A program made the position numbers and the translations under genes. From Geodermatophilus sabuli (GTDB lineage Bacteria > Actinomycetota > Actinomycetes > Mycobacteriales > Geodermatophilaceae), in contig NZ_JAAGWF010000002.1 in assembly GCF_010686765.1 (NCBI RefSeq), positions 1 to 64,000 on the forward strand: a DNA stretch of 64,000 bases. The letters are read 5' to 3'. Position 1 is the first letter of the stretch. Each line of letters begins with the position of its first letter. Under the pieces are notes generated by a model that had not been told where the DNA came from, ran no database searches, and was given only the letters and a program-made list of their open reading frames with translations. Shown here piece after piece: positions 5,758-32,033 of the stretch.

Positions 5758-7238
5758 CAGAAGCGGACGTAGTCGTACTCGACCGGCAGGGAGTTGATGC
5801 CGACCGAGGGCGGGGAGATCCAGCCGGCGAACTCGCCCGGCTCGTAGTGCGGCACCATCAGCTCGGCCACGCGGGCGCGGTCGTCGGGCGTGGGCAGGTG
5901 GTCGCCCACGATCGCGTCCCAGGTCGCCTCGTCGACGATCTCGCCGGTGGGCGTCACGTGGTGCCCGGCGAAGGCGCCGACCTTCCGGTTGAAGCCCTGG
6001 TGCGGCAGGACGAGCCGCTCCTCCAGCCCGGCGTCCTCCAGCTCCTGGTTCCACCGCCGGACGCCGTTCTCGCAGTCGGCGGCGTACTCGTTGCGCAGGT
6101 CCAGGTTGAGCGCGGTGAGCATCGGCACCGTCTTGAGGCTCATCGCGCCGTTGTCGATGATCGGCACGTCCATGGTCAGGTCGTGCAGCTGGTGGTCGTC
6201 CTTGCGGCGGGTCTCCATCCACCGGCCCTTGAGCCCGGCGGTGTAGTACGACGCGACGTTCGACGACGTCTCGGAGCCGAAGAGGTCCATCGACACCGAG
6301 TACTGGAAGTTCAGGTACTTCTGGATCACCGAGAGCGGGATGCCGCCGTACTGCCAGATGTCGTCGGTGCCGTGCTCCCTCATGAGCTGGGCGGTCCGCT
6401 GGACGGTGCGCTGCACGCCCGTCGTCCCGACGAACATGTGGTGCGCCTCCTCCTTGAGCATGAACTCGCAGGTGCGCGCCAGCGGGTCGAAGCCACTCTC
6501 CTTGAGCGTGCCGAGCTGGTACTTGCCGTCCCGGTCGGTGAAGTAGGTGAACATGAAGAACGACAGCCAGTCGGTCGTCTCCTCGTTGAAGGCACCGAGG
6601 ATGCGCGGGGAGTCGAAGTCGCCGGAGTTGCGCTTGAGCAGCTGCTCGGCCTCCTCGCGGCCGTCCTTCCCGAAGTAGGCCTGCAGCAGGTAGACCATCG
6701 CCCAGAGGTGGCGGCCCTCCTCGACGTTGACCTGGAAGAGGTTGCGCATGTCGTAGAGCGACGGCGCGGTCATGCCGAGGTGGCGCTGCTGCTCGACCGA
6801 GGCGGGCTCGGTGTCGCCCTGGACGACGATCAGGCGGCGCAGGTCCGACCGGTGCTCGCCGGGGACCTCCTGCCAGGCCGGCTCGCCCAGCCTGTCCCCG
6901 AAGTTCACCTTGCGGTCGGGGTCGCGCTCGGCGAGGAAGATGCCCCACCGGTAGTCCTCCATCGGCACCCGGTCGAAGTGTGCCCAGCCGTCGCGGCCGA
7001 CCGCGATCGCGGTGCGCAGGTAGACGTCGTGGGTCGGGACGGAGGGCCCGAGGGTCTTCCACCAGTCGAGGAACTTGGGCTGCCAGGCCTCCAGGGCACG
7101 CTGCAGCTTGCGGTCGCCGGCGAGGTTGACGTTGTTCGGGATCTTCTCGCTGTAGTCGATCCTCGACAGCGGCCCGGTCGGGGTGGGGGCGTCGCCGGTG
7201 ACGGTGCCGGACTGCGGGGTGGATTCGGTCGTGGTCAT
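5757..7238 (-). CDS. boxB: Benzoyl-CoA 2,3-epoxidase, oxygenase subunit
   Basis: 493 residues, ATG start two bases after the boxC stop. BoxB is a di-iron enzyme that epoxidises the ring of benzoyl-CoA with O2 and external electrons. Two metal-ligand motifs are clear: EEGRH at 173-177 and EEAHH at 263-267. N-terminal KIPNNVNL and the long segments around DWLSFFMFTYFTDRDGK and DYVRF at the C-terminus are characteristic of BoxB. Length matches the family (about 475 residues). Order boxC-boxB-ligase fits the known box pathway. The partner BoxA is missing here; see the ferredoxin and ferredoxin reductase downstream. Confidence 0.95.
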   Translation of the reverse strand: MTTTESTPQSGTVTGDAPTPTGPLSRIDYSEKIPNNVNLAGDRKLQRALEAWQPKFLDWWKTLGPSVPTHDVYLRTAIAVGRDGWAHFDRVPMEDYRWGIFLAERDPDRKVNFGDRLGEPAWQEVPGEHRSDLRRLIVVQGDTEPASVEQQRHLGMTAPSLYDMRNLFQVNVEEGRHLWAMVYLLQAYFGKDGREEAEQLLKRNSGDFDSPRILGAFNEETTDWLSFFMFTYFTDRDGKYQLGTLKESGFDPLARTCEFMLKEEAHHMFVGTTGVQRTVQRTAQLMREHGTDDIWQYGGIPLSVIQKYLNFQYSVSMDLFGSETSSNVASYYTAGLKGRWMETRRKDDHQLHDLTMDVPIIDNGAMSLKTVPMLTALNLDLRNEYAADCENGVRRWNQELEDAGLEERLVLPHQGFNRKVGAFAGHHVTPTGEIVDEATWDAIVGDHLPTPDDRARVAELMVPHYEPGEFAGWISPPSVGINSLPVEYDYVRF

Positions 7239-26744: not shown

Positions 26745-27617
26745 TCAGCGGGGCCAGACCGCCAGCAGGGTGCGCACGGCGGTGACCAGGGCCAGCGGCT
26801 GGTCGAGCATCGGGTGGTGTCCCGCCTCGGGCAGGTCGACGACGGGCAGCCCACCGGGCACCAGCGCGGCCATCTCGGCGGCCATCTCCCGGCTGACCAG
26901 GCCCTGCTCGCAGCGGAACAGCGCGGCGGGGGCGCCGAGCCGGGGGAGCAGCCGGCGCACCGGCGGACGGTCGCCGGAGAACGCCGGGTCGAACTTCCAG
27001 GTCCACCCACCCTCGACGGCCCGCAGCGAGCCCCGGGCGACGTGCTCCCGGACGGCGGGCAGGTACACCTCCTGGGGCGGCAGCGTCCGGAACCGGGCGA
27101 CCGCGGCCTCGACGGTCGGGTGCACCCGGTGCACCCGCGGCTCGTCGCGCAGCTCCCGCTCCTCCGGCGGCTGGCGGTCCAGCGGCGAGTCGATGACCGC
27201 GACGCCGGCGACGTCGCCGGCGTGCTCGACGCCCAGGGTCAGCGCGACCCACCCGCCCATGCTGTGCCCGAGGACCACCGGACGGCGCAACTGCTCGGCC
27301 GCGGCCACGGCCAGCACCTCGCGCGCCCAGACCGCCGTCCCGTAGGAGGGGCGCCGCCCGCTGTCCCCGTGCCCGCTGAGGTCGAGCGCGACGACGGTGT
27401 GGGTGTCCAGCAGCGGCGCCACGTGGTCCCACCACCCGGAGTGCGCCGCGCCGCCGTGCACGAGGACCAGCCCCGGCCGGCCCGGCGGGCCCCACACCCG
27501 GTAGTGCACCGGCACGCCCCCGACGCGCACGTCGCGGTGCACCGGCGGGGTGGCCACCGCGCGGAGGAACCAGGCCGGGGGAGGGGCGCCGGCGTCGGTG
27601 GGTCCGGGGCGGGACAT
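26745..27617 (-). CDS. Alpha/beta-fold hydrolase
   Basis: 290 residues, ATG start. LVHGGAAHSGWWDHVAPLL carries the oxyanion region, LDLSGHGDSGRR follows, GHSMGGW near residue 118 holds the nucleophilic serine, VIDSPLD a later strand acid and EAGHHPMLDQP the catalytic histidine. Closest in style to generic meta-cleavage-product or epoxide-hydrolase-like enzymes. Convergent with the YceI gene, divergent from the selenoprotein gene. Substrate unknown. Confidence 0.82.
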   Translation of the reverse strand: MSRPGPTDAGAPPPAWFLRAVATPPVHRDVRVGGVPVHYRVWGPPGRPGLVLVHGGAAHSGWWDHVAPLLDTHTVVALDLSGHGDSGRRPSYGTAVWAREVLAVAAAEQLRRPVVLGHSMGGWVALTLGVEHAGDVAGVAVIDSPLDRQPPEERELRDEPRVHRVHPTVEAAVARFRTLPPQEVYLPAVREHVARGSLRAVEGGWTWKFDPAFSGDRPPVRRLLPRLGAPAALFRCEQGLVSREMAAEMAALVPGGLPVVDLPEAGHHPMLDQPLALVTAVRTLLAVWPR

Positions 27618-27712
27618 GCGGGCTCCTGGTGGCGACGACGGCGACGGCCGGTCGCGACGCTACGCACGACCGGCACCGCACCCCCTCGGCGGCCCCGGCC
27701 GACGCTCCGGCG

Positions 27713-27742
27713 TTGACCGGCGTCCCACCTGCTCGTTAGGGT
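27713..27742 (+). promoter_or_regulatory. Promoter of the UGSC selenoprotein operon
   Basis: TTGACC (27713-27718), 18 bases, TAGGGT (27737-27742) is close to the actinobacterial primary-sigma consensus. It gives a leader of roughly 80-85 bases before the ATG at 27833. The rest of the 215-bp divergent gap shows no other clear signal. Confidence 0.55.
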
Positions 27743-27832
27743 CAGCGTGCGGCCAGAGAACTTGCGTTCGGATGCCGCACACCTGCGCCGGGCTCTCGCG
27801 GGGCCCGGCGCCCCGACGATCGAGGAGTCGCC

Positions 27833-28369
27833 ATGCAGCTCGAGTCCATCCTGGACCCGACCGGCGCGACCGATGCCACGGCGGACACGTCGCTGGCCCC
27901 CCGCATCACCACGCTGCGGGGCAAGACCCTCGGGCTGCTGGACAACGGCAAGCCCAACGGCGCCGCCCTGCTCACCGAGATCGGTTCGGTGCTCCAGCAG
28001 CGGTACGGGGTCAAGGACGTGCTGATGTTCACCAAGCCCTACTTCGGCACGCCCGTGGAGCCCACGCAGACCGAGCGGATCTTCGAGGAGTGTGACTTCG
28101 CCGTAGCGGCGATCGGCGATTAGGGCTCCTGCAGCGCGGCCAGTCTGGCCGACGGCATCCTGTTGGAGCGTCAGGGCGTGCCCACCGTCTCCGTCTGCAC
28201 CGACGCCTTCCGCATCACCGCGGAGGCGATGGCCCGGACCTACGGGTTCCCGGGCTTCCAGTACGCCTCCATCCCGCACCCGGTGGCGAGCCTGTCCGCC
28301 GAGGGGATCGCGCAGCGCGTCGAGGAGATGCTGCCGCGTCTCCTGGAGATCCTCGGGGTCGAGGAGTGA
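27833..28369 (+). CDS. UGSC-family selenoprotein with UAG-encoded selenocysteine
   Basis: ATG with GAGGAG six bases upstream; 178 residues when the in-frame TAG at 28121-28123 is read as selenocysteine (residue 97), ending at TGA 28367-28369. Residues 1-96 (with LGLLDNGKPNGAALL and TKPYFGTPVEP) run into AIGD-U-GSCSAASLADG and on to VPTVSVCTDAFRIT. The TAG sits exactly at the first position of the UGSC motif, which gives a U-x-x-C redox pair with Cys100. The reading frame and family-like sequence are intact on both sides, so this is not a dead gene. Use of UAG for selenocysteine is reported for Geodermatophilus and Blastococcus. A standard annotation would split it into two. Enzymatic function is unknown. 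Confidence 0.88.
28121..28169 (+). promoter_or_regulatory. Bacterial SECIS-like hairpin just 3' of the UAG codon
   Basis: Directly after the TAG, GCTCC (28125-28129) can pair with GGAGC (28165-28169), and inside it GGCC (28138-28141) pairs with GGCC (28147-28150) around the loop AGTCT. The apical stem starts 14 bases after the codon and the loop GU lies about 20 bases after it, within the range of known bacterial SECIS elements. The GUCU in the loop resembles the GGUCU loop of the E. coli fdhF element. The middle of the stem pairs poorly. Confidence 0.6.
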
Positions 28370-28397
28370 CCGGTCGCGGGCCGAGCCGGGGAGCCCT

Positions 28398-29456
28398 GTG
28401 AACGACACCCAGCGGGCGATCGAGCACTGCTTCGCGCAGGGGTGGACCGACGGGCTGCCCGTCGTCCCCTGCGACGCGGCGGCGCTCGACGCCGTGCTCG
28501 CACGGGTCGCCCGCGACCCGGACGAGGTCCTGCTGGGCATGCCGCAGATCAACCGCGCGGTCACCGTGCGGCTGGCGGCGATCAACGCCGTGATGGCAGG
28601 CTGCCTGCCCGAGTACTTCCCGGTGGTCGTCGCGGCGTGGGACTCCCTGCGCGAGGAGGGCTACCCCCGCAAGGGCATCTGGCAGAGCACCACCGGCACG
28701 GCGTCGCTGCTGCTGGTCAACGGCCCGGTCCGGCGCGAGCTGGGGGTCAACAGCCAGGGCAACCTCTTCGGGCCGGGGTTCCGGGCCAACGCGACCATCG
28801 GCCGCGCGATCCGGCTGGCGGCGATCAACTCCCTCGGGCTCCGGCCGCACGAGTTGGACCAGGCCACCCAGGGCACCCCGGCGAAGTACACCGCGTGCAT
28901 CGGGGAGAACGAGGAGGAGTCGCCGTGGACGCCGCTGCACGTCGACTTCGGGCTGGCTCCGGACGACAGCGCCGTCACCGCGATGACCATGCGGTCGACC
29001 GTGCACATCGAGGCCCGGCACACCGGGGTCCCGGAGCAGCTGCTGTTCGACGTCGCGGGGACGCTGGCGCGGACCGGGGCCCTGCTGCACCAGACGGTGA
29101 GCGCGTGCGTGGTGCTGTGCCCCGAGCACGCCCACCTGCTCGCCGACGCGGGGTGGAGCAAGCGCGACGTGTCGCGGCACCTCTACGAGCAGTCGTTCGT
29201 GGCCCGGGAGACCCTGGACCGGGCCGGCAAGGGCGCCGTGTCGCAGAAGAGCCACTGGCGGGTGGCCCGCGACCACCCCGACGCCGTCGTGGACGCCGGG
29301 GCCGACCCCGAGCGGGACGGCATCCACACGATGACCTCGCCGGACGCCGTCCTGGTCGTGGTCGCCGGTGCGTCCAACTCGGGCGTCTCGGCCGTCGTGG
29401 AGACCTTCGGCCCGCGCGGCGACCGGCCGGCGGTCACCCCGGTCGCGGCGGTCTGA
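28398..29456 (+). CDS. Conserved protein of unknown function, partner of the UGSC selenoprotein
   Basis: 352 residues, GTG start with GGGGAG upstream, 28 bp after the selenoprotein. I do not recognise a named domain. Landmarks are QGWTDGLPVVP near residue 14, MAGCLPEYFPVV near 66, KGIWQSTTGTA near 94, FRANATIGRA near 129, and DQATQGTPAKYTACIGENEEE near 153-173, which contains a conserved Cys and a cluster of acids. A close paralogue is at 40280. No signal peptide or membrane segment is seen. Position next to the selenoprotein and an acyl-CoA synthetase suggests one functional unit, perhaps a thiol- or thioester-dependent step. No function can be named. Confidence 0.8.
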   Translation: MNDTQRAIEHCFAQGWTDGLPVVPCDAAALDAVLARVARDPDEVLLGMPQINRAVTVRLAAINAVMAGCLPEYFPVVVAAWDSLREEGYPRKGIWQSTTGTASLLLVNGPVRRELGVNSQGNLFGPGFRANATIGRAIRLAAINSLGLRPHELDQATQGTPAKYTACIGENEEESPWTPLHVDFGLAPDDSAVTAMTMRSTVHIEARHTGVPEQLLFDVAGTLARTGALLHQTVSACVVLCPEHAHLLADAGWSKRDVSRHLYEQSFVARETLDRAGKGAVSQKSHWRVARDHPDAVVDAGADPERDGIHTMTSPDAVLVVVAGASNSGVSAVVETFGPRGDRPAVTPVAAV

Positions 29457-29457
29457 C

Positions 29458-31131
29458 GTGACCGGGCCGGCCGGCGAGGCTCCCCGCTTCCGCGACAACC
29501 TCGCCACGCTGCTGGAGGCGGTCGCCGACGCGATGACCGAGCTGGACCCCGGCCGCACCGCGCTGGTGCACGGGGACCGGACCCTCACCTGGGCGCAGTT
29601 CGACGACCGGGCCGCCCGGCTGGCCGGGTCTCTCGCGGCCGCCGGCGTCGGCCACGGCGACCGCGTGGGCGTCGGCCTCCACAACTCCCCGGAGTACCTG
29701 GAGGGCGTCGTCGCGGCGCTCAAGCTGCGCGCCGTGCCGGTGAACGTCAACTACCGGTACCGGGAGGCCGAGCTGGAGCAGGTCCTGGCCATGGTCGACG
29801 CCCGGGCGCTCGTGTGCGACGGCACGCTGGCCGGTGCGGCGGTCGCCGTCGCCTCGCGGACGCCGGGGCTGCGGGCCGTCGTCGTCGTCGCCGGGGACGG
29901 GGACGGGGCCCCGCCGGGCGGCGCCACCGGGTACGACGAGGCACTGGCCGGACCGCCGCTGCCGCGCCGGGAACGCTCGGCCGACGACCAGGTCATCGTG
30001 CTCACCGGCGGGACCACCGGGCTGCCGAAGGGCGTGGTCTGGGACTGCGCGGGGCTGTGTGGCCTGGTGTCGTCGGCCTACAAGCGGGTCGACCTGCCGG
30101 TGCCCGCCGACACCGCGGGCGTCGTCGCCTCCGCCCTGGCCGCGGCCGGCGCCGGGACCGAGCCGGTGGTGCTGCCGGCCTCGCCGCTGATGCACGGCAC
30201 CGGCTTCTTCGCCGCGCTGGGCAACCTGGTCCGCGGCGGCCGGGTGGTCACCCTCCCGCAGCGTTCGCTGGACTGCGCCGCACTCTGGACGGCGGTGCAG
30301 GAGCACCGGGTGGCCGAGTTGGTCATCGTCGGGGACGCGTTCGCCGTCCCGCTGGTGGCCGAGCTGGACCGGGCCGCCGCCGCGGGCACCCCCTACGACC
30401 TGTCGTCGCTGCGCCGGGTGTTCAGCAGCGGCGTGCGCTGGGGCACCCAGACCAAGCGGCGCCTGCTCGAGGCCGGGCACATGACCCTGCAGGACACGAT
30501 CGCGGCCACCGAGGGCGGCCCCTTCGGCCTGTCGATGTCGGGCCCGGACCCGGACTCGGCCAACACCGTGTTCACGCTGCCGCCCAACGCGCGCGTCCTC
30601 GCCCCCGACGGCACCGACGTGCGGCCCGGCTCCGGACAGGAGGGCGTGCTGGCCAGCACCGGCAACCTGCCGCTGGGCTACCTCGACGCGCCGGAGGCCA
30701 CCGTCGCGGTGTTCCGCACCCTGGACGGCGTCCGGTACGCCGTCCCCGGGGACTCCGCGACGCTGGAGGCCGACGGCACGCTGACCCTGCTCGGCCGCGG
30801 CTCCGGCGTGATCAACACCGGCGGGGAGAAGGTGTTCGCCGAGGAGGTGGAGCACGTCCTCGCCGAGCACCCCGCGGTGGCCGAGGCCGTCGTCGTCGGG
30901 GTCCCGGACGAGCGCTGGGGGAGCGTGGTGACCGCGCTCGTCGTCGCCGAGCCGGGCACCGCCCCCACCGCGCAGGAGCTGGCCGACCACGTCGGCGGCC
31001 GGCTGGCCGGGTACAAGCGCCCGCGGGCGGTGTCGGTGGTGCCGGTGATCGAGCGGACGGTGTCGGGGAAGATCGACCGGCGGTGGGCGGCCGAGCAGGC
31101 GCTGCGGCTGGACGCCCCGGCTCAGAGCTGA
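29458..31131 (+). CDS. AMP-dependent acyl-CoA synthetase
   Basis: 557 residues from a GTG one base after the upstream stop. ANL family: the phosphate loop is LTGGTTGLPKGVVWD (G in place of the usual S), near residue 180; GRGSGVINTGGEKVFAEEVEH carries the adenine-hinge and A8 region; VSGKIDRRWA has the C-terminal lysine. The architecture resembles actinobacterial FadD-type steroid or acyl-CoA synthetases rather than benzoate-CoA ligases. It completes a three-gene set with the selenoprotein and its partner. Its last 10 bp overlap the convergent IclR gene. Confidence 0.85.
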   Translation: MTGPAGEAPRFRDNLATLLEAVADAMTELDPGRTALVHGDRTLTWAQFDDRAARLAGSLAAAGVGHGDRVGVGLHNSPEYLEGVVAALKLRAVPVNVNYRYREAELEQVLAMVDARALVCDGTLAGAAVAVASRTPGLRAVVVVAGDGDGAPPGGATGYDEALAGPPLPRRERSADDQVIVLTGGTTGLPKGVVWDCAGLCGLVSSAYKRVDLPVPADTAGVVASALAAAGAGTEPVVLPASPLMHGTGFFAALGNLVRGGRVVTLPQRSLDCAALWTAVQEHRVAELVIVGDAFAVPLVAELDRAAAAGTPYDLSSLRRVFSSGVRWGTQTKRRLLEAGHMTLQDTIAATEGGPFGLSMSGPDPDSANTVFTLPPNARVLAPDGTDVRPGSGQEGVLASTGNLPLGYLDAPEATVAVFRTLDGVRYAVPGDSATLEADGTLTLLGRGSGVINTGGEKVFAEEVEHVLAEHPAVAEAVVVGVPDERWGSVVTALVVAEPGTAPTAQELADHVGGRLAGYKRPRAVSVVPVIERTVSGKIDRRWAAEQALRLDAPAQS

Positions 31132-32033
31132 CCGGGCGGGGTGGGCCGCGCGCCGAGCAGGGCGATGTCCCGCTCGATCTGCGCGGCGGTCTCCCGCAGC
31201 GCCTCCAGGGAGGTCCGTCGGAGCGCGGCGGCGGACATCCGCCGCGCGTGCGTGCCGACGTTCACCGAGGCGACGACCGTGCCGCCGGCGTCGCGGATCG
31301 GGACGGCGAGGGAGGTCACGCCCTCCTCGAGCTCCTGGTCGACGAGCGCGTACCCCTGCGCGCGGACGTCCATCAGGCGCTGGCGCAGCACCGCCGGGTC
31401 GGTCGTCGTCCGGGCGGTGCGGGCCGGCAGGGGGGTGCGCGCGAGGTAGTCGTCGAGCGCCTCGTCGGGGAGCCCGGCCAGCTGCGCCCGCCCGTGTGAG
31501 GTCAGGTACGCCGGCAGCCGGGTGCCGATGCTGATCCCGCTGGACGCCACCCGCCGGGGGCCGACCCACGCCACGTAGACCACGTCGTCACCGTCGAGGA
31601 CGGCGATGCTCGTCGTCTCCTTCAGCCGGTTGGAGAGGGCGGTCAGGTGCGGCGTGGCCACCTCGGGGAACGACAGGAGCGACAGGTAGGTGTAGCCGAG
31701 CTCCAGCACCGTCGGCCGCAGGTGGAACCGGCGCTCCACGGTGCCGACGTAGCCGAGGTCGACCAGGGTGAGCACGAAGCGGCGGGCGGCCGCGCGGGTC
31801 ATGCCGGTGCGCCGCGCGATGTCGCTGAGCGTGAGCTCCGGCTCGTCGGCGGTGAACGCCTTGACGACGGCCAGCCCGCGCTCCAGTGACTGCACGAAGT
31901 AGTCCCCGCGTGGCCGGACGCCGGTGGCCTCCGGGCCCGCGTCGTCCTCGGGGCCGGCTGCGGCGTCGGGTTCGGTCAGTGGGCCCAGCTCCTCCGCGCG
32001 TGCGCGGCCCTGCGCCGCGGTGTCCGTGTCCAC
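31122..32033 (-). CDS. IclR-family transcriptional regulator (PcaR-like)
   Basis: 303 residues. An acidic, low-complexity N-terminus of about 42 residues precedes the winged helix: YFVQSLERGLAVVKAFTADEPELTLSDIARRTGMTRAAARRFVLTLVDLGYV (residues about 45-96). The effector domain starts at SYLSLL-like YTYLSLLSFPEVATPHL and includes GTRLPAYLTSHGRAQLAG and SLAVPIRDAGGTVVASVNVGTHA. The wording is close to PcaR/PcaU-type regulators of protocatechuate genes. It lies 48 bp behind the aconitase X genes as the last gene of that operon and probably regulates it, the divergent module, or the palindromic sites near ligAB. Confidence 0.88.
   Translation of the reverse strand: MDTDTAAQGRARAEELGPLTEPDAAAGPEDDAGPEATGVRPRGDYFVQSLERGLAVVKAFTADEPELTLSDIARRTGMTRAAARRFVLTLVDLGYVGTVERRFHLRPTVLELGYTYLSLLSFPEVATPHLTALSNRLKETTSIAVLDGDDVVYVAWVGPRRVASSGISIGTRLPAYLTSHGRAQLAGLPDEALDDYLARTPLPARTARTTTDPAVLRQRLMDVRAQGYALVDQELEEGVTSLAVPIRDAGGTVVASVNVGTHARRMSAAALRRTSLEALRETAAQIERDIALLGARPTPPGQL

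What the first reader, a model, noticed from the sequence alone, without database searches (positions are those of the whole stretch)
27833..28369. UGSC-family selenoprotein whose selenocysteine codon is UAG, not UGA
An in-frame TAG at 28121-28123 stands exactly at the U of the UGSC motif (AIGD-TAG-GSCSAAS). The frame is open and family-like for 96 codons before and 81 codons after it. UGSC proteins are known with UGA-selenocysteine or cysteine there. UAG decoding as selenocysteine has been reported for Geodermatophilus and Blastococcus (Mukai and colleagues 2016, recalled from memory). This gene would be split or lost in a normal annotation, and the U-x-x-C pair would be invisible.
Basis: partly seen in the sequence, partly recalled or inferred. 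Interest (0 to 1): 0.95.

Follow-up and report, generated by a model that had tools for sequence, protein, structure and literature searches.

The report
Selenoprotein gene with UAG for selenocysteine
This Geodermatophilus-type bacterium carries a gene with an in-frame UAG stop exactly where relatives have selenocysteine or cysteine, and its genome holds a selenocysteine tRNA with the matching anticodon that is predicted to read it; this code variant was reported before in this bacterial family, and the tRNA variant turns up here in most of the family's genomes searched.

Summary
Window 27833-28369 (+) is a UGSC-family gene (PF24696, E 1.6e-62) with TAG at 28121-28123 in the U column. The same genome holds selA, selB, selD and a tRNA-Sec with anticodon CUA, plus two more such genes: a second UAG-UGSC gene and a formate dehydrogenase with UAG at its Sec site. 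A hairpin with G23-U24 in its loop follows the codon in 24 of 24 UAG rows and 3 of 3 UGA rows, but in 0 of 82 Cys rows; its stem covaries. Codon and anticodon match: 48 of 48 family genomes with a UAG-UGSC gene have CUA; 3 of 3 UGA-UGSC genomes tested have UCA. Selenocysteine insertion itself is inferred.

It is not new in kind: Santesmasses 2017 says that Mukai 2016 reported UAG formate dehydrogenases and UGSC proteins in Geodermatophilaceae. New here are the extent (CUA in 95 of 112 family genomes; 0 of 392 others by one pattern), UAG/UGA mixing inside gene clades, a Pfam-less partner gene beside nearly every UGSC gene, and Geodermatophilus marinus, which also carries a UCA tRNA-Sec next to a gene with TGA at a CxxU site: a possible double selenocysteine code.

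The parts
27833..28369 (+). UGSC-family selenoprotein gene, 178 residues if UAG is read as Sec
   Evidence: PF24696 and NF041046 over cut-off; frame open on both sides
28121..28123 (+). predicted selenocysteine codon UAG (residue 97, U of U-G-S-C)
   Evidence: sequence; column is TAG, TGA or Cys in relatives
28137..28151 (+). SECIS-like hairpin, stem nt 17-21 with 27-31 counted from the codon, loop AGUCU 28142-28146
   Evidence: 24 of 24 UAG and 3 of 3 UGA rows have a four-pair stem plus G23-U24, 0 of 82 Cys rows; covariation; same loop position as E. coli fdhF; folding energy alone not significant
28398..29456 (+). partner gene, 352 aa, no Pfam or NCBIfam family
   Evidence: on the same strand within 500 bases of UGSC in 83 of 84 loci and 42 of 43 further loci; fused to it in two genomes; no family hit
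29368..31131 (+). acyl-CoA synthetase-like gene (longest ORF; it overlaps the partner gene, so the true start probably lies further in)
   Evidence: PF00501 173.2 bits and PF13193; kept behind UGSC and partner in the 4 UAG relatives
31122..32033 (-). IclR-type regulator
   Evidence: PF01614 and PF09339; kept in the 4 UAG relatives

Best explanation
The UAG at 28121 stands at the selenocysteine position of a UGSC-family gene and is predicted to be read as selenocysteine by the genome's tRNA-Sec with anticodon CUA, which would give a 178-residue selenoprotein. Shown: the gene, the codon, the tRNA, selA, selB and selD, the conserved hairpin, and the match of codon and anticodon across genomes. 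Inferred: SerRS charges the tRNA, SelA makes Sec-tRNA, and SelB carries it to the UAG after binding the hairpin loop, in competition with release factor 1. Also inferred: U97 and C100, at the start of a helix in a predicted flavodoxin-like fold, form a selenenylsulfide redox pair, and the enzyme works as a complex with the 352-residue partner next door. Its substrate is unknown; the neighbouring CoA ligase suggests an organic-acid catabolic step.
For: UGSC profile over cut-off. tRNA-Sec RF01852 64.2 bits with CTA anticodon, beside selA 416.9 bits, selB 281.6 and selD 388.4, all over cut-off. Four UGSC copies in the genome, two with one TAG and two with TGC. Formate dehydrogenase-like gene with UAG before HSSTVPGLG. 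In a whole-genome scan for TAG-N18-RGTNTG, 11 hits (21 for the reversed control pattern); 3 have a full 4-pair stem, and these are the two UGSC genes and the formate dehydrogenase. Hairpin with G23-U24 in 24/24 UAG rows (23 distinct genes), 3/3 UGA rows and 0/82 Cys rows. Covariation on 16 distinct sequences: 98.8% of cells paired, 4 of 5 pairs with changes on both sides; 0 of 500 shuffles as high for the covariation score, 6 of 500 for pairs changed on both sides, 54 of 500 for pair types. Codon and anticodon agree. Purifying selection after the UAG.
Against: No peptide, selenium or translation data. Folding energy alone does not stand out from shuffles (z -0.25 and -1.31 for the window; -0.62 formate dehydrogenase, 0.56 second UGSC gene, -1.61 the UGSC gene L118). 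16 of 82 Cys rows also have G23-T24 and 8 of 82 a full stem, though none has both. Rows are related, and the hairpin lies in conserved coding sequence. How often UAG ends other genes in this genome was not counted. Redox role and partner complex rest on motif, predicted fold, neighbourhood and fusion only.
Confidence: 0.94

Rival explanations
1. The TAG is a sequencing error or a recent nonsense mutation in a dying gene.
For: The genome is a draft in 122 contigs, and nonsense changes are common in dying genes.
Against: 72 of 95 UGSC matches in 112 family genomes carry exactly one TAG, at the U of UGSC in all 24 rows looked at; dN/dS 0.24-0.30 after the codon in 7 of 7 comparisons.
Confidence: 0.01
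2. UAG is read as another amino acid, for example pyrrolysine; ARAGORN calls the tRNA tRNA-Pyl (cta).
For: ARAGORN's label.
Against: Rfam scores the tRNA as tRNA-Sec, 64.2 bits against a threshold of 47, and it lies beside selA and selB. Relatives have Cys or UGA at the column. A search for pylS was not made.
Confidence: 0.02
3. Translation stops at UAG and the two halves are made separately.
For: UAG is a normal stop; some termination at it is likely in any case.
Against: The hairpin goes with the UAG or UGA codon and not with Cys, and the homologue reads through with Cys at that place in 73 of 80 named loci, a share raised by the search patterns.
Confidence: 0.03

Closest known systems
UAG-selenocysteine in Geodermatophilaceae (Mukai et al. 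2016, not held; known through Santesmasses et al. 2017, PMC5330540, of which section 17 was read in full)
   Same: tRNA-Sec with CUA anticodon, UAG in formate dehydrogenase and in UGSC-motif selenoproteins, same bacterial family
   Different: Santesmasses met three such tRNAs in their genome set; here CUA is found in 95 of 112 family genomes, UCA alone in 7, and both in one. The AhpC with Sec-UAG that they add for Blastococcus saxobsidens was not met in this genome by the motif scan, which sees one loop and spacing only.
UGSC-containing selenoproteins with UGA (Global Ocean Sampling paper, PMC2398784, passages read)
   Same: same family name and UxxC motif
   Different: codon UAG instead of UGA; the predicted fold here is a row of five strand-helix units, flavodoxin-like, where that paper says it likely has a thioredoxin-like fold; it reports a UGSC fusion to a domain Unknown_1, which may or may not be the partner described here
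E. coli fdhF UGA-SECIS
   Same: loop nt 22-26 GGUCU in fdhF and in this genome's formate dehydrogenase; G23-U24 in these and in the UGSC genes
   Different: UAG in place of UGA; the loop begins with A in the UGSC genes

Membership tests
UGSC family (PF24696, NF041046) | profile score over the curated cut-off | tested here: met
   211.1 against 25 and 158.2 against 125
UGSC family (PF24696, NF041046) | U/C-G-S-C motif | tested here: met
   TAG-GSC; C97 G98 S99 C100 invariant in 45 rows, the window row entered with TAG=C
Geodermatophilaceae UAG-Sec code | tRNA-Sec with CUA anticodon | tested here: met
Geodermatophilaceae UAG-Sec code | selA, selB, selD present | tested here: met
Geodermatophilaceae UAG-Sec code | UAG at Sec sites of formate dehydrogenase and UGSC genes | tested here: met
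Geodermatophilaceae UAG-Sec code | bacterial SECIS hairpin after the codon | tested here: met
   loop position and covariation; folding energy alone not significant
Geodermatophilaceae UAG-Sec code | selenium incorporated at UAG in the cell | not testable with these tools
   no protein data
Pyrrolysine decoding of UAG | tRNA-Pyl | tested here: inconclusive
   Rfam reports the tRNA as tRNA-Sec at 64.2 bits and nothing else in the locus, ARAGORN labels it tRNA-Pyl by its anticodon; no tRNA-Pyl model was compared directly
Pyrrolysine decoding of UAG | pylS synthetase gene | not tested
   no search was made
Flavodoxin-like fold | alternating strands and helices with a close solved relative | tested here: inconclusive

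The most novel reading that the evidence does not exclude
Selenocysteine has moved as a whole from UGA to UAG in most of Geodermatophilaceae, gene after gene following the tRNA, and Geodermatophilus marinus has since regained UGA-selenocysteine from a mobile island that brings its own UCA tRNA-Sec beside a peroxidase-like CxxU gene, so that one cell reads two stop codons as selenocysteine through one SelA.
Probability: 0.5. Interest if true: 0.82.

Novelty: new member of a known kind. Interest (0 to 1): 0.52.

Why it matters
Annotation that takes UAG as stop ends these genes early, so a family's selenoproteins stay hidden. The survey turns a reported curiosity into a natural experiment: UGSC genes of one clade carry UAG in hosts with CUA and UGA in hosts with UCA, with the hairpin kept, so the codon appears to follow the tRNA. 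Genomes with UCA inside the family may bracket the switch. A genome with both tRNAs would be a natural test of whether one SelA/SelB set can serve two selenocysteine codons. The constant partner gene gives a handle on what UGSC proteins do.

Tried and rejected

Folding energies of the hairpins are ordinary for such G+C-rich sequence; the case for the hairpin rests on loop, spacing and covariation. The promoter and terminator scan of 27600-31200 found nothing.

Limits of the counts. The genome-contig scan used peptide patterns with C at the Sec place, so the 73 Cys loci of 80 are over-represented. In one search four loci (L109-L112) showed no GSC motif and were left out; among the rows L024 and L108 are one gene (by place), and L028 and L101 one (identical). 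In one search L220, L221 and L223 were left out for lack of the motif; the tree program warned that long branches meet and that the bootstrap had not settled. The partner was missing in L089 (gene at the edge of its contig) of 84 and in L110 of 43. In the class search at most 8 candidates per genome were scored. Ten family genomes have no tRNA-Sec found: G067 was searched with the Rfam model and gave none, the other nine only with the two patterns. The tRNA of the UGA-UGSC genome G203 was not looked for. The 72/23/0 split was counted by hand from its 95 rows.

The AhpD-like gene of G. marinus: in 15 aligned relatives, picked from 120 listed of 233, the TGA column is C in 8, W in 6 and L in 1. 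W may be UGA read as Trp by a source's gene caller, or a real Trp, which would make the TGA a nonsense change; this is open. Its hairpin loop AGUUU sits two bases earlier than in UGSC genes, and its energy is not significant.

The Pfam scan of window 29457-31128 was in the wrong frame and was replaced.

Full report
THE OBSERVATION. The frame 27833-28369 is open except for TAG at 28121-28123, which follows AIGD and precedes GSCSAAS. Read with a residue at TAG it is a full UGSC-family protein, over both curated cut-offs.

THE GENOME. Its genus includes genomes G053 and G054, whose tRNA-Sec places fit those found through the named loci of G. ruber and G. sabuli, so it is a Geodermatophilus-type genome. 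On another contig selA, selB and selD are over their cut-offs, and a tRNA lies just before selA that Rfam calls tRNA-Sec at 64.2 bits. Its anticodon is CTA; ARAGORN labels it tRNA-Pyl. Eight further Rfam hits in the genome scored lower; the seven with loci are tRNA-Ser, -Leu, -Tyr or -Met, the eighth was not read.

OTHER UAG GENES IN THE SAME GENOME. There are four UGSC copies: this one, another with one TAG at the same place, and two with TGC. One molybdopterin oxidoreductase has a single TAG, in NQARI-TAG-HSSTVPGLG; that this is the selenocysteine site of formate dehydrogenase is from general knowledge. A scan of the whole genome for TAG, 18 bases, RGTNTG gave 11 hits, against 21 for the reversed control pattern; three of the 11 have a four-pair stem around the loop, and they are these three genes.

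THE HAIRPIN. Counted from the codon, nt 17-21 pair with 27-31 and the loop is 22-26. The loop is AGUCU here, AGUGU in the second copy and GGUCU in the formate dehydrogenase; E. coli fdhF has GGUCU at the same place. A four-pair stem plus G23-U24 is present in 24 of 24 UAG rows (23 distinct genes) and 3 of 3 UGA rows, and in 0 of 82 Cys rows; 16 Cys rows have the GU alone and 8 the stem alone. On 16 distinct sequences (UGSC genes and the formate dehydrogenase) 98.8% of cells pair and four of five pairs change on both sides. No shuffle of 500 reached the covariation score, 6 reached the number of pairs changed on both sides, 54 the number of pair types; slid controls fall to 17-51% paired. Folding energy alone is not significant.

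ACROSS GENOMES. In 112 family genomes, UGSC was found in 54, with 95 matches: 72 with one TAG, 23 without a stop, none with TGA. 48 genomes have at least one TAG copy. A CUA tRNA-Sec was found by pattern in 75 and by Rfam and ARAGORN in 20 more, so in 95 of 112; all 48 are among them. UCA was found by pattern in 8: seven genomes of three genera without CUA by pattern, of which none has a TAG copy, and G058, which has both. For ten genomes no tRNA-Sec was found. selA is over its cut-off in 108 of 112. Of three named genomes with UGA-UGSC genes (a Pseudonocardiaceae MAG, Plantactinospora mayteni, P. endophytica), three have UCA. In 394 genomes of the class, the two with the CUA pattern are the two family members, so 0 of 392 others; of 21 others with UGSC none has TAG and one has TGA. 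The pattern found 75 of the 95 CUA genomes of the family, so cases outside are not excluded.

HISTORY. In a tree of 62 rows the window's UAG genes and three UGA genes form one clade (support 100/99), and a distant UGSC subfamily likewise mixes 13 UAG genes with one UGA gene (100/99); the program warned of long branches and an unsettled bootstrap. Which codon came first inside these clades is not resolved; UGA as ancestor is the usual view. The stretch after the UAG evolves under purifying selection in 7 of 7 pairs.

FUNCTION. The UGSC model (pLDDT 89) has five strand-helix units; residue 97 lies between the third strand (89-93) and the helix 98-113. A 352-residue gene follows on the same strand. 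It has no Pfam or NCBIfam family and 7905 relatives among 8000 candidates scored; of the 120 listed those with a name are called hypothetical protein, two of them also Thioredoxin in UniRef. It lies on the same strand within 500 bases of UGSC in 83 of 84 loci and 42 of 43 further ones, sets that overlap a little. In Dactylosporangium sp. AC04546 and Nocardioides marmoriginsengisoli the two are one open frame (loci L091, L097). This points to a two-subunit enzyme. A UGSC fusion to an unnamed domain was reported in 2008 (PMC2398784, passages). In the four UAG relatives a CoA ligase-like gene (PF00501) and an IclR regulator follow. The redox role and any substrate are inferred.

WHAT IS KNOWN. 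Santesmasses 2017 (PMC5330540, section 17 read) states that Mukai 2016 reported CUA tRNA-Sec, UAG formate dehydrogenases and UGSC-motif selenoproteins in Geodermatophilaceae, and adds an AhpC. Mukai 2016 itself is not held. In a 2026 review of prokaryotic selenoproteins the passages found name UAG only as a stop or in engineered systems (PMC13188914). The rows shown by my searches (some lists were cut) include no family-wide survey and no genome with two selenocysteine codons; most subscription papers are not held, so this is no proof of absence.

A SECOND FINDING ON THE WAY. G058 is Geodermatophilus marinus: a protein on the contig in question is identical over the whole query to one of that species on a contig of the same length, 69,133 bases, with other Geodermatophilus proteins among its relatives. 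That contig carries a second tRNA-Sec, UCA, 81.8 bits. It lies in the first 6 kb, at 61-68% G+C, with transposase families at 274-834 and 6089-6862 and a Mu-type one further on, while the 10-kb stretch with the genome's CUA tRNA is at 79%. About 300 bases from it lies a peroxidase-related AhpD-like gene (TIGR01926, 112.6 bits against 81.8) with TGA at CFY-TGA. The same genome has a CUA tRNA-Sec and a UAG-UGSC gene and one selA match. This would be a double selenocysteine code; it is unproven.

Noticed in passing
L198 (G. marinus, contig C17) 1169-1263 (-) and 1579-2157 (+): A UCA tRNA-Sec beside an AhpD-like gene with in-frame TGA at CFY-U, on a low-G+C stretch with transposase genes, in a genome that also has a CUA tRNA-Sec.
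   Followed up: partly
window 28398-29456 and related loci: Partner gene of UGSC without any Pfam or NCBIfam model, within 500 bases of UGSC in 83 of 84 and 42 of 43 loci and fused to it in two genomes.
   Followed up: partly
L002 4587-4682: ARAGORN names this tRNA-Sec (CUA) tRNA-Pyl, and did so for every CUA tRNA-Sec locus given to it, so automatic annotation may mislead.
   Followed up: yes
L225, Arthrobacter sp. YA7-1 plasmid pYA7-1a: A plasmid typed as conjugative carries selA, selB, selD, a UCA tRNA-Sec and a formate dehydrogenase cluster: a possibly transferable selenocysteine trait.
   Followed up: partly
G066, G068, G069, G070, G072, G073, G074: Seven genomes of three genera inside the family have a UCA tRNA-Sec and may bracket the codon switch.
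   Followed up: no
G000 contig C87 at 270201-270719 and 281123-281644: Two Cys (TGC) UGSC copies about 10 kb apart; after the codon they form a hairpin with a GGUC loop out of the SECIS register, perhaps a relic.
   Followed up: no
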